Part shown: in pieces, positions 1-5,418 of the stretch
Position numbering within the stretch: the stretch's first letter is position 1
Layout of the letters: each line of letters begins with the position of its first letter
Origin: Promethearchaeota archaeon
GTDB taxonomy: Archaea > Asgardarchaeota > Lokiarchaeia > Sigynarchaeales > SOKP01
Assembly (NCBI GenBank): GCA_014730295.1
Contig: WJIN01000090.1
Span: 1-5,418 of the forward strand
DNA length: 5,418 bases
Direction of reading: 5' to 3'
The notes under the pieces: model-generated
What the model saw: only the letters and a program-made list of their open reading frames with translations
Told to the model about the DNA's origin: nothing
The model's database searches: none
Made by a program: the position numbers and the translations under genes

Positions 1-136
1 TCAGAAGTAAGGTTTTATTTTTCTTTAAACTATATCGAAAATAGTTTTCAATCAAGCCCTTAATCTTCCAACCGTTCTCACCAAGAATTTTTTGTAGATT
101 TTCTATTTCGCTTACTGATAATGGAGTTATTGACAT
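1..136 (-). CDS. Unrecognised protein, N-terminal 45 residues (runs off the left edge)
   Basis: An open frame starts at an ATG (136-134) and stays open to the edge of the window. It gives 45 codons, beginning MSITPLSVSEIENLQKIL, with an amphipathic helix-like stretch and then a basic patch (RYSLKKNK). I do not recognise the family, and too little is visible to assign a function. The start is the only ATG in a sensible place, because further upstream the same sequence is present as a second tandem copy whose ATG has become AAG. The first 12 codons lie inside that duplicated unit. A TATA-like box (221-228) lies about 90 bp upstream. No Shine-Dalgarno site is seen. The protein-like composition and a start close to a plausible archaeal promoter support a real gene, but only its beginning can be judged here. 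Confidence 0.55.
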   Translation of the reverse strand, partial: MSITPLSVSEIENLQKILGENGWKIKGLIENYFRYSLKKNKTLLL

Positions 137-212
137 AATGATTTACATTGAATAAATTCTATTTCACTTACTGATAATGGAGTTATTGACTTAATGATTT
201 ACATTGAATAAA
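101..212. repeat. Tandem direct duplication, 2 x 56 bp
   Basis: Bases 101-156 and 157-212 are near-identical adjacent copies, 54 of 56 bases matching. The differences are 110 G versus 166 A, and 135 A versus 191 T. The unit covers the first 12 codons of the minus-strand gene at the left edge plus 20 bp of its leader. The second difference changes that gene's ATG to AAG in the promoter-proximal copy. Since 56 is not a multiple of three, a start in that copy would read out of frame and stop soon after. Confidence 0.95.
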
Positions 213-3822: not shown

Positions 3823-4383
3823 TTAGAATTGTTTTCTAATTTTTTGATTATTATATTTCTTAATTGCTCTTTCGCGCCATACAGTTCTCCATCGCTTAAA
3901 TCCACTCTTAACATATTTTTCACGATTCGGAAAATCTCGACTTAACCAATTGAAAAGGACGAAATAACGTTTAGCACCACTTTTCTTGGTTAAATTACGT
4001 GAGCTGACCCCTAGTTTTCTAAGATGAGATACTAACCTACCTTCAACCGCATCCTGCAGTTTTCCTTCTATAGCTGACGCTTTATAAGATATTCCGTTCT
4101 CTTCAAAATAATAACGAACTAAATCAAAACAGTCTCCTCGACAGAGTTTTATTTTGTCCTTATCTTCATCATATCCTAAATCACATAATCCTTCTTGTAC
4201 AAGTTCTAATATTTTCTTCTTAGGGGCATTTTTTCTCAGGTTTTCTTGATTATATAATCCAACGGGGACCGATTTGAAAATTATTTTTCCAGTTTCAACA
4301 ATATGAAATCCGATAAAGGCATCACCAATAAGATCTCCGGTGCCACTGTCATCAATCTCTATTGTTTTTCCTTTTTTATCCAT
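3823..4383 (-). CDS. Conserved-looking archaeal protein, possible RNase H-like fold, basic C-terminus
   Basis: A 186-residue protein if started at the ATG at 4383. The frame extends seven codons further to a TTG at 4404, but the ATG sits right before the conserved-looking core and is preferred. The N-terminus, IEIDDSGTGDLIGDAFIGF (residues 8-26, Asp11, Asp12, Asp17), reads like the first hairpin of an RNase H/RuvC-like fold, with acidic residues on strand one followed by a Gly-rich turn and second strand. Later acidic positions are Asp84 (RGDCF), Glu106 and Glu114 (IEGKLQDAVEGRL). The last 30 residues are rich in Lys, Arg and aromatics, which suits nucleic-acid binding. This fits a nuclease or RNA-binding protein, but the fold call is inference from pattern and I cannot name the family. 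It stands alone, divergent from the CinA-type gene and 93 bp ahead of the sulfatase-fold gene. Confidence 0.75.
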   Translation of the reverse strand: MDKKGKTIEIDDSGTGDLIGDAFIGFHIVETGKIIFKSVPVGLYNQENLRKNAPKKKILELVQEGLCDLGYDEDKDKIKLCRGDCFDLVRYYFEENGISYKASAIEGKLQDAVEGRLVSHLRKLGVSSRNLTKKSGAKRYFVLFNWLSRDFPNREKYVKSGFKRWRTVWRERAIKKYNNQKIRKQF

Positions 4384-4578
4384 TATGATCGTCTTATTAA
4401 ACAATATTTTCTTAAATTCTTAATCCTTGACTATTCAACCTTAATTGAACAAAAAGCTAAAACTTCATTTTCTTAAATTAAGAATATAATAAATATCTAA
4501 AGATTTTATGAAAATAGATTTAATTACAAATAATAGGAAAATAATAATATTGAATTCTAATTATGTGATTTAAGAATA

Positions 4579-4611: not shown

Positions 4612-5418
4612 ATGATAATCGAATTATTAATGATTGGAAATGAGATCTTGATTGGAAAGACAAAAGATACAAATTCTAATTGGTTGGCTAAGCGAATTAC
4701 GAAATATGGGCATCATGTTCGAAGAATAACTACAATCGGAGATGAATTAGATGAAATATCATCGACGATTAGAGAAATTATTAATCGTAATCCAGATATT
4801 GTAATAACCTCGGGTGGACTAATTTAAAAGAATCTCTCTTTAAAGTCTAAGGTCCTACTTTTGATGATATGACAAACGAGGGAATTGCAAAAGGATTAGA
4901 CAGAGAAGTAATAAAGGATAAAGATGCCTATAATTCTATTAAGAAAGCTTATAACTCTGCTTATGAACAAGGAATACTTAAAATGAAGGGTATGACTAAA
5001 GAGCGGGAGAAAATGGCTTATTTGCCAGAGGGCTCAACTCCTCTTCCAAATGTAAGAGGCACTGCTCCCGGTGTGAAACTAAAAGAGAAAAATAGCACTA
5101 TTTTTATCTTACCAGGTGTTCCTGCGGAGATGAAAAAAATGTTTATTAATATTATTAAACCAATTCTAAAAGAGAAGGAAGGAAGTTTCCACCAAAAAGG
5201 ATTTCTTCTTTCAGGTGTAGGAGAAAGTCAAATCGCACCCTATGTAACTGAATTAGAGGAAAGAAATCCAGAATTATGGATAAAAACACATCCAAGAGTA
5301 GGTTTAGCAGTAGAAGTTGAGATATCAATAACTTGTTTTGATAAACCAAACTGTGAAGACTTGATTGATAACGTTCTAGCAGAGTTAAAAAATATAGTTC
5401 AAGATTTAGGGGGAACAA
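4612..5418 (+). CDS. cinA: CinA-type (MoCF/molybdopterin-binding-like) protein, two exons, partial at right edge
   Basis: Exon 1 (4612-4821) gives 70 residues typical of the CinA N-terminal domain: MIIELLMIGNEILIGKTKDT, then NSNWLAKRITKYGHHV, then DIVITSGGL. Exon 2 (4851 to the edge) continues with GPTFDDMTNEGIAKGL, LPEGSTPLPNVRGTAPG (about residues 128-144) and LPGVPAEMKKMF (157-168), all family hallmarks, and stays open for 189 codons. Joined, 259 residues are visible, close to the full length of archaeal single-domain members, which lack the bacterial C-terminal NMN amidohydrolase domain. Bacterial relatives of this domain have ADP-ribose pyrophosphatase activity tied to pyridine-nucleotide salvage; the archaeal role is less clear. 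Without splicing, a TAA at 4825-4827 would end the protein after 71 residues. The absence of any other lesion in exon 2 argues for a functional gene whose transcript is spliced. A frameshifted pseudogene or assembly error is the alternative. Confidence 0.85.
4822..4850 (+). other. Putative 29-nt archaeal BHB intron within the CinA-type gene
   Basis: Removing these 29 nt joins CTA to GGT and restores GGLGPTFDDMT exactly. The flanks fold as a canonical hBHBh' substrate of the tRNA-splicing endonuclease. Outer helix: 4812-4815 with 4852-4855 (two G-C, two G-U pairs). Central 4-bp helix: 4816-4819 (GGAC) with 4845-4848 (GUCU), one pair being G-U. Bulge 1 is UAA (4820-4822) and bulge 2 is AAG (4849-4851), each 3 nt, on opposite strands. 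Intron helix: six perfect pairs, 4823-4828 with 4839-4844, and a 10-nt loop. Cuts after the second nucleotide of each bulge fall at 4821/4822 and 4850/4851. The structure and the protein frame were found independently and give the same boundaries. Splicing itself is not shown by DNA. Confidence 0.8.

What the first reader, a model, noticed from the sequence alone, without database searches (positions are those of the whole stretch)
4812..4855. BHB-type archaeal intron in a protein-coding cinA-type gene
A 29-nt insertion breaks the frame inside the most conserved CinA motif (GGL|GPT) and brings an in-frame TAA. The insertion and its flanks form a textbook hBHBh' element: 4-bp central helix GGAC/GUCU, two 3-nt bulges (UAA and AAG) on opposite strands, a 4-bp outer helix and a perfect 6-bp intron helix. 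The canonical cut positions, after nucleotide 2 of each bulge, remove exactly 4822-4850 and restore the motif to the codon. BHB introns are well known in archaeal tRNA and rRNA genes, but in mRNA only a few cases are established, notably cbf5 in some Crenarchaeota. I know of no report in cinA, though I cannot search for one. If real, EndA and RtcB process this mRNA, and splicing could gate CinA expression.
Basis: partly seen in the sequence, partly recalled or inferred. Interest (0 to 1): 0.93.

Follow-up and report, generated by a model that had tools for sequence, protein, structure and literature searches.

The report
Tiny mRNA introns in Asgard archaea
A protein gene of an Asgard archaeon is interrupted by a 29-letter insert that looks like a real intron of the kind archaea normally cut out of transfer RNAs, and relatives carry similar inserts in this gene and in four others, including RNA polymerase and the enzyme that should rejoin the cut ends.

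Summary
The window is an Asgard (Lokiarchaeia-type) contig; 29 nt (4822-4850) with an in-frame stop split a cinA-type gene at SGGL|GPT, and both predicted BHB cuts fall exactly on the codon junction. BHB-like motifs are common by chance, so comparison carries the case. The same site is interrupted by 29-30 nt in 4 of 74 class genomes with a cinA match; 36 of 47 database N-terminal fragments stop just after it. Helices survive paired changes, exon codons favour the pairing (4 of 5 versus 1 of 45), and both exons are under purifying selection. Genes first taken as controls carry such inserts too: rtcB (3 of 75 genomes), rpoB (3 of 77), rpoA1 (6 of 77), cbf5 (1 of 80, at the codon of the known crenarchaeal intron); none seen in endA or argS. 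In all, 12 of 83 genomes. Against: no RNA data; the window's BHB is not its lowest-energy fold; several copies are relaxed BHBs and two rpoA1 inserts (50, 65 nt) fit poorly. Confirmed precedents are cbf5 mRNA and a haloarchaeal 5'UTR; my searches listed no report for cinA, rtcB or Asgard mRNAs.

The parts
4612..4821 (+). cinA exon 1 (70 codons, MIIELLMIGNEILIG...PDIVITSGGL)
   Evidence: ORF; PF00994 59.3 bits; phase 0 junction
4822..4850 (+). 29-nt BHB intron with in-frame TAA, shifts the frame
   Evidence: same-site inserts in four other genomes
4851..5418 (+). cinA exon 2 (GPTFDDMTNEG...), incomplete at the contig end
   Evidence: ORF 4869-5417; PF00994; most aligned relatives run a few residues further
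4812..4815 (+). outer helix h, 5' strand GGGU (exon 1)
4816..4819 (+). central helix H, 5' strand GGAC (exon 1)
4820..4822 (+). bulge 1 UA|A, predicted cut after 4821
4823..4828 (+). intron helix h', 5' strand UUUAAA
4839..4844 (+). intron helix h', 3' strand UUUAAA
4845..4848 (+). central helix H, 3' strand GUCU (intron)
4849..4851 (+). bulge 2 AA|G, predicted cut after 4850
4852..4855 (+). outer helix h, 3' strand GUCC (exon 2)

Best explanation
It is a bulge-helix-bulge intron in a protein-coding mRNA of a Lokiarchaeia-type Asgard archaeon. The pre-mRNA pairs the end of exon 1 with intron and exon 2 sequence to form an hBHBh' element. The tRNA splicing endonuclease EndA, which relatives encode as one catalytic-looking and one structural-looking subunit, cuts after nucleotide 2 of each 3-nt bulge and releases 29 nt. 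RtcB (or another RNA ligase) joins CUA to GGU and so restores SGGLGPT in the CinA/MoCF domain; without splicing only a 71-residue fragment is made. It belongs to a wider set of short introns in Loki-class mRNAs. Shown here: geometry, codon-exact cuts, same-site introns in relatives, paired changes, codon bias at paired synonymous positions, purifying selection on both exons, EndA and RtcB genes in relatives, similar inserts in rtcB, rpoB, rpoA1 and cbf5. Inferred: that EndA cuts, that RtcB joins, and that the spliced mRNA is translated.
For: Codon-exact excision and restored domain. Same junction interrupted in G001 (CP070831, single-contig chromosome, 30 nt), G002 (30), G026 and G027 (29), each with in-frame stops; 4 of 74 class genomes with a match. 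36 of 47 database N-terminal fragments end 1-16 residues after GG-L/I, 33 with Ile next; 19 of the 36 tails have exactly 7 residues. Shuffled inserts, exons fixed, reach the observed pairing with probability 2.5e-4 (window), 5.5e-5 (G002), 0.022 (G001), 8.6e-4 (G027), 6.0e-4 (G026). Pairs kept by changes on both sides: central C-G to U-A and three intron-helix positions. Exon-exon outer helix fully paired in 4 of 5 intron genes versus 1 of 45 intronless (Fisher 1.1e-4); Leu codon YTA in 5 of 5 versus 4 of 45 (5.9e-5). Substitutions at codon positions 1+2 0.18-0.29, position 3 0.40-0.52. EndA in 82 of 83 and RtcB in 75 of 83 class genomes. Same kind of insert in rtcB, rpoB, rpoA1 and, at the known crenarchaeal position, cbf5: 17 of the 19 interruptions found, window included, are 29-32 nt long.
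Against: No RNA data. The window's BHB fold (-2.6 kcal/mol) is far from the MFE (-9.8) and its folding energy is not unusual (z -0.92). In cinA of G026 and G027 the fourth central pair is G.A, in G027 the outermost pair is lost, in G001 the intron helix is 3 bp before a 2x2 mismatch and its shuffle probability is only 0.022. In rpoA1 the two longest inserts (G002 50 nt, G040 65 nt) have weak or unclear BHBs, and the site-B ones (G050, G030) have 3 of 4 central pairs. The window's own genome is not held, so EndA and RtcB are inferred from relatives. An ab initio scan of 400 kb of G001 showed no excess of frame-restoring BHBs over other bulge sizes.
Confidence: 0.93

Rival explanations
1. A pseudogene: cinA was broken by a small insertion and is decaying; the BHB shape is coincidence.
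For: The gene is split into two ORFs; G001 carries a second copy with only the N-terminal part; the window's fold is not energetically favoured.
Against: Same-site but different-sequence inserts in five genomes counting the window, selection on both exons, codon bias for pairing, one cinA copy only in G002, G026 and G027; the same kind of insert in RNA polymerase genes, which can hardly all be dead.
Confidence: 0.02
2. The full protein is made without splicing, by programmed frameshifting or stop readthrough, as was once proposed for cbf5 (PMC2738675, passages seen).
For: Inserts of 30 nt keep the downstream frame (G001 and G002 cinA, G081 rtcB, rpoA1 of G042, G029, G050 and site A of G030).
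Against: The 29-, 31- and 32-nt inserts also shift the frame; G001 and G002 cinA need two stops read, G029 rpoA1 three; the product would put about ten residues into invariant motifs.
Confidence: 0.02
3. Sequencing, binning or assembly artefact.
For: All sequences here are metagenome assemblies.
Against: Independent assemblies, including a single-contig chromosome, give different inserts at one codon boundary; a comparison of 1352 ORFs with 1.06 Mb of fetched DNA found out-of-frame inserts in the range 12-120 nt only of 29-32 nt.
Confidence: 0.01
4. The RNA is cut by EndA but not rejoined, so the BHB is a control switch that truncates the mRNA rather than an intron.
For: EndA acts on a BHB in the 5'UTR of a haloarchaeal mRNA and affects its expression (PMC7714728, passages seen); the unspliced ORF still makes a 71-residue fragment.
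Against: Both predicted cuts are codon-exact and selection acts on both exons; inserts in rpoA1, rpoB and rtcB would then remove proteins that are probably essential (inference).
Confidence: 0.02

Closest known systems
cbf5 pre-mRNA introns of Desulfurococcales and Sulfolobales (Yokobori 2009, PMC2738675, passages seen; Watanabe 2002 and Yoshinari 2006 seen only in reference lists)
   Same: Short (16-44 nt there, 29-32 nt for most here), BHB at the borders, cuts between bulge nucleotides 2 and 3, inserted in critical motifs, patchy. The G081 cbf5 insert lies between letters 1 and 2 of the same catalytic Asp codon
   Different: Host genes also cinA, rtcB, rpoB, rpoA1; different phylum; not experimentally shown
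BHB in the 5'UTR of Haloferax HVO_1309 (PMC7714728, passages seen)
   Same: EndA acting on an mRNA
   Different: In a 5'UTR, not within a coding sequence
BHB introns of archaeal tRNA and rRNA genes
   Same: Same predicted RNA element and enzymes
   Different: Here in coding sequence; abundant tRNA introns are reported for Atabeyarchaeia and Freyarchaeia (PMC11291895, passages seen), which do not mention mRNA introns in those passages
HAC1/XBP1 mRNA splicing (IRE1 plus tRNA ligase or RTCB; recalled, abstracts seen in search listings)
   Same: An mRNA intron removed by an endonuclease and a tRNA ligase without a spliceosome
   Different: Different nuclease and RNA motif; stress-regulated there, no regulation shown here

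Membership tests
Archaeal BHB (EndA-dependent) intron | 4-bp central helix flanked by two 3-nt bulges on opposite strands | tested here: met
   Window: 4 of 4. Of 19 interruptions 13 have 4 of 4 central pairs (window, G001 and G002 cinA, rtcB G002 and G064, rpoB G026, G027 and G038, rpoA1 site A of G042, G029, G030 and G002, cbf5 G081) and 6 have 3 of 4 (cinA G026 and G027, rtcB G081, rpoA1 G040, G050, G030 site B)
Archaeal BHB (EndA-dependent) intron | Cuts after bulge nucleotide 2 coincide with the exon borders | tested here: met
   Window exact. Borders in the other copies were placed by homology together with the BHB, so this is not independent for them; rpoA1 of G040 gave no clean fit
Archaeal BHB (EndA-dependent) intron | BHB is the preferred fold of the RNA | tested here: inconclusive
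   Within about 3.5 kcal/mol of MFE in G002, G026, G027 cinA and both rtcB site-1 copies; window -2.6 versus -9.8, G081 rtcB -13.3 versus -20.5, G001 poorly modelled; whole-element folds not computed for rpoB, rpoA1, cbf5
Archaeal BHB (EndA-dependent) intron | EndA and a ligase in the same organism | tested here: inconclusive
   Window's genome not held. In six relatives EndA in 6, RtcB in 5 (none found in G026)
Archaeal BHB (EndA-dependent) intron | EndA cleaves and the spliced RNA exists | not testable with these tools
   No RNA data or bench work
cbf5-type archaeal pre-mRNA intron | Host gene cbf5, catalytic Asp codon | tested here: not met
   The window's host is cinA. In a relative, G081, cbf5 itself has such an insert at that codon
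Group I or group II self-splicing intron | Match to a catalytic intron family | tested here: not met
   No Rfam match at gathering threshold in the window; 29 nt is far too short
Spliceosomal intron | GT-AG borders | tested here: not met
   Insert reads ATTTA...TCTAA
CinA / MoCF-domain protein | PF00994 domain over the joined exons | tested here: met
   116.9 bits, cut-off 26.6; best NCBIfam PRK01215 258 bits is below its 293 cut-off, so the exact enzyme is not assigned

The most novel reading that the evidence does not exclude
mRNA splicing by EndA and RtcB is a routine layer of gene expression in Lokiarchaeia: short, mostly 29-32 nt introns sit at recurrent codons of invariant motifs in core genes (both large RNA polymerase subunits, cbf5, cinA), scattered over species, possibly moving or repeatedly regained. 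One interrupts the only detected rtcB of two genomes, so the ligase must splice its own message, a self-licensing loop.
Probability: 0.55. Interest if true: 0.93.

Novelty: new member of a known kind. Interest (0 to 1): 0.86.

Why it matters
In the papers I could read, introns within archaeal coding sequence rest on one confirmed gene, cbf5, in Crenarchaeota. Recurrent BHB introns in five genes of Asgard archaea, the relatives of eukaryotes, would show that mRNA splicing by tRNA enzymes is not a crenarchaeal oddity, would explain genes that now read as broken or as two ORFs (including RNA polymerase), and give a natural system for intron gain and loss at fixed codons. It can be tested at once in existing metatranscriptomes.

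Tried and rejected
Motif-only argument: rejected; 22 loose hBHBh' motifs in the window.

On re-checking rows with short open frames this proved wrong for rpoB and cbf5, and rpoA1, searched afterwards, has the most. The zero-background argument is withdrawn; the new cases raised the best explanation from 0.91 to 0.93, the novel case from 0.40 to 0.55 (reworded) and interest from 0.78 to 0.86. I did not check every short frame in those lists.

Ab initio survey of 400 kb of G001: 199 frame-restoring candidates, no excess over other bulge sizes; of the 35 printed most looked by eye like fusions of neighbouring genes and I accepted none. That filter would also have missed the known G001 cinA intron. 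A laxer scan was too permissive and dropped. The homology scan found out-of-frame inserts of 12-120 nt only at known sites plus G081 cbf5; it cannot see in-frame 30-nt inserts bridged by one alignment.

Viral collection: none of 28 pattern matches encodes a relative. ARAGORN on the 400 kb: none without introns, four low-confidence intron-bearing candidates with introns allowed; not used. One search used a misplaced structure on an alignment with a gap in a helix and is discarded; pairs were counted from the splice sites. One search used a wrong strand and is discarded. Trans-splicing of the extra N-terminal cinA copy in G001: considered by eye, no matching central helix.

Tree: the intron label needs 4 changes, forced by supported branches, and 0% of 200 bootstrap trees make it one group; but 63 of 500 label shuffles are as low, so it is not clearly clustered. 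One gain would need 13 losses on the midpoint-rooted tree. I cannot choose between many losses and repeated gain.

Full report
What is there. The window carries a stand-alone MoCF/CinA-type gene on the + strand running off the contig end, read as ORF 4612-4827 and ORF 4869-5417, both matching PF00994. Joined without 4822-4850 the protein matches the whole domain (116.9 bits) and is 67-80% identical to the 20 uninterrupted relatives I aligned, taken from 3462 proteins at E <= 0.001, 120 listed. Source names among the listed relatives are Promethearchaeota, Lokiarchaeota, Thorarchaeota, Hermodarchaeota and Hodarchaeota, all Asgard. The closest genome loci are titled Lokiarchaeota. No genome is held for the window. 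Rfam finds no known RNA family.

Geometry and chance. Loose hBHBh' motifs are common in this AT-rich DNA: 22 in the window, both strands. The informative number is the chance of a BHB at ends already fixed by homology: 29 of 1.6 million (start, end) pairs of length 29-30 in 400 kb of a related genome, 1 of 1.6 million at this score. Against it, the window's BHB is not the lowest-energy fold (-2.6 versus -9.8 kcal/mol).

Relatives. Of the 80 best genome loci kept from 221, 76 are uninterrupted at the motif, 2 (L015, L045) are interrupted and 2 (L047, L052) lack the site. A class-wide search found cinA in 74 of 83 genomes. Four have an insert at exactly this site: G001 (single-contig chromosome CP070831, 30 nt), G002 (30), G026 and G027 (29). 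Of the others I read the site in G003, G004 and the 28 loci L087-L114 and in G025 and G015; all uninterrupted. Some (G045, G049, G071) do not cover the site. Over the phylum 196 of 227 genomes match; no further split at this site appears in the rows listed, but the list was cut. In the protein database 36 of 47 N-terminal fragments end 1-16 residues after GG-L/I, with Ile next in 33, Val in 2 and Phe in 1; 9 continue into GPT and 2 end earlier (one search's script counted 34). P0131 among the 36 is the extra N-terminal copy of G001, not an intron gene.

Selection for the structure. With positions counted from the splice sites, the central pair next to bulge 1 is C-G in the window, U-A in G002 and U-G in the other three; intron-helix pairs 3, 5 and 6 also change on both sides; shuffle probabilities are 2.5e-4, 5.5e-5, 0.022, 8.6e-4 and 6.0e-4 for window, G002, G001, G027 and G026. 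Exceptions: G.A at the fourth central pair in G026 and G027, a lost outermost pair in G027, a 3-bp helix then 2x2 mismatch in G001. Four exon-exon pairs form in 4 of 5 intron genes (the fifth has three) against 1 of 45 uninterrupted Loki genes; the Leu codon is YTA in 5 of 5 against 4 of 45 (Fisher 1.1e-4 and 5.9e-5; sequences are related, so these are guides). Changes at codon positions 1+2 are 0.18-0.29 and at position 3 0.40-0.52 among the five, so the coding function is kept.

Distribution. On a 50-protein tree the intron genes fall in four places; the window's sister L001 is uninterrupted. At least 4 changes are forced, or one gain and 13 losses. The label is not significantly clustered (63 of 500 shuffles as low).

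Machinery. PF01974 (EndA) is found twice in each of six genomes examined and at least once in 82 of 83 class genomes. In G001 and G002 one copy has Tyr, His and Lys where I recall the catalytic triad, the other lacks the His (by eye). This fits a two-subunit enzyme, the type linked to relaxed BHBs and the cbf5 intron in Crenarchaeota (PMC2738675, PMC6379350, passages seen). RtcB is found in 75 of 83; none in G026.

rtcB. In G002 and G064 rtcB is split by 29 nt at SPGGVGY|DINCG with a UUGG/CCAA central helix, 3-nt bulges and a 9-bp intron helix; the canonical cuts restore the tyrosine codon (shuffle probability 1.0e-5 and 5.0e-6). The outer helix is weak, so these are relaxed elements. No other rtcB was found in either genome. 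Among the best 120 of 1642 N-terminal RtcB matches, 16 clusters end in SPGGVGY plus I-K/R-A or a similar short tail; 4 more flagged by the script are distant and not counted. In G081 a 30-nt insert with TGA lies at LPD|AHQGYG. If RtcB splices these, the ligase needs itself to be made; another ligase could do it, and draft genomes may hide a second copy.

RNA polymerase and cbf5, found on re-checking. rpoB is split at PD|IPGF by an identical 32-nt insert in G026 and G027 and at DPG|GYF by 31 nt in G038, all with a CCUG/CAGG central helix, out of 77 genomes with a PF04563 match. In a combined shuffle test (central pairs kept and intron hairpin at least as stable) the probabilities are 5e-5 for G026 and G027 and 3.5e-4 for G038; by simple position pairing G026 is unremarkable (0.20) because its helix has an asymmetric loop. 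rpoA1 is interrupted in 6 of 77 genomes: site A, CMGHFGH|IEL, in G042, G029, G030 (30 nt each), G002 (50 nt) and G040 (65 nt); site B, TYDEDG|LPIP, in G050 (30) and G030 (31). G042, G029 and G030 site A have 4 of 4 central pairs with sequence changes between them and probabilities 3.5e-4, 5e-5 and 1e-4; G050 8.5e-4 and G030 site B 0.010 have 3 of 4; G002 (0.012) and G040 fit poorly. The best of several tested registers is quoted, so these probabilities are lower bounds. cbf5 of G081 has a 32-nt insert between letters 1 and 2 of the GTL-D catalytic Asp codon, 4 of 4 central pairs, probability 1e-4; Yokobori 2009 places the crenarchaeal intron at that codon position. The three G081 stretches have similar G+C (0.46-0.48); contamination of that bin is not excluded. 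Total: 19 interruptions with the window's, 17 of them 29-32 nt, in 12 of 83 class genomes plus the window. None was seen in the EndA (82 genomes, list cut) or ArgRS (79) rows, which show domains only. Introns of different genes end in GUCUAA (window cinA, rpoA1 of G042 and G029), a hint at common descent or a preferred site that I did not test.

Known work. Yokobori 2009 (PMC2738675, passages seen) states that archaeal pre-mRNA splicing was confirmed only for cbf5, with predictions in other genes including 12-bp putative introns in a viral genome. A 2020 paper (PMC7714728, passages seen) still names cbf5 as the only other example beside its HVO_1309 5'UTR. PMC11291895 (passages seen) reports very many tRNA introns in three Asgard genomes. 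Nine library searches listed no report of introns in cinA, rtcB or Asgard mRNAs; none was aimed at RNA polymerase genes; the library holds only open-licence PMC papers, so this is not proof of absence.

Verdict. A real BHB intron, very likely spliced; each is a new member of a known but tiny class, and their number in core Asgard genes is the surprising part.

Noticed in passing
L121 about 1230-1259; L124 minus strand; L125 about 582-611: BHB-type inserts in rtcB, the RNA ligase gene, at two different sites in three Loki-class genomes.
   Followed up: yes
L154 about 1277-1307; L156 minus strand; L157: BHB-type inserts in rpoB at two sites in three genomes.
   Followed up: yes
L186-L191: Inserts in rpoA1 at two sites in six genomes, one genome (G030) with both.
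   Followed up: yes
L162 minus strand, reverse-complement 974-1005: 32-nt BHB-type insert in cbf5 of G081 at the codon of the known crenarchaeal intron.
   Followed up: yes
G003:C31, G006:C111, G029:C88 (rows): rpoA1 of three genomes has a long in-frame insertion near model position 446-454, intein-like.
   Followed up: no
L115 minus strand, G001 1419124-1419333: A second, N-terminal-only cinA copy about 10 kb from the complete intron-bearing copy in the same chromosome; no second exon 2 found.
   Followed up: partly
L115 minus strand, start of the complete G001 cinA copy: No ATG, GTG or TTG between the upstream in-frame stop and the conserved N-terminus; start codon unclear.
   Followed up: no
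window 106-212: A near-perfect direct repeat of about 53 nt in the upstream intergenic region, read by eye; function unknown.
   Followed up: no
L119 (G015:C114): A more distant CinA relative whose match is split near residue 180, away from the intron site; possible frameshift.
   Followed up: no
window 3823-4404 minus strand: A 193-aa ORF without a Pfam or NCBIfam match next to cinA.
   Followed up: no
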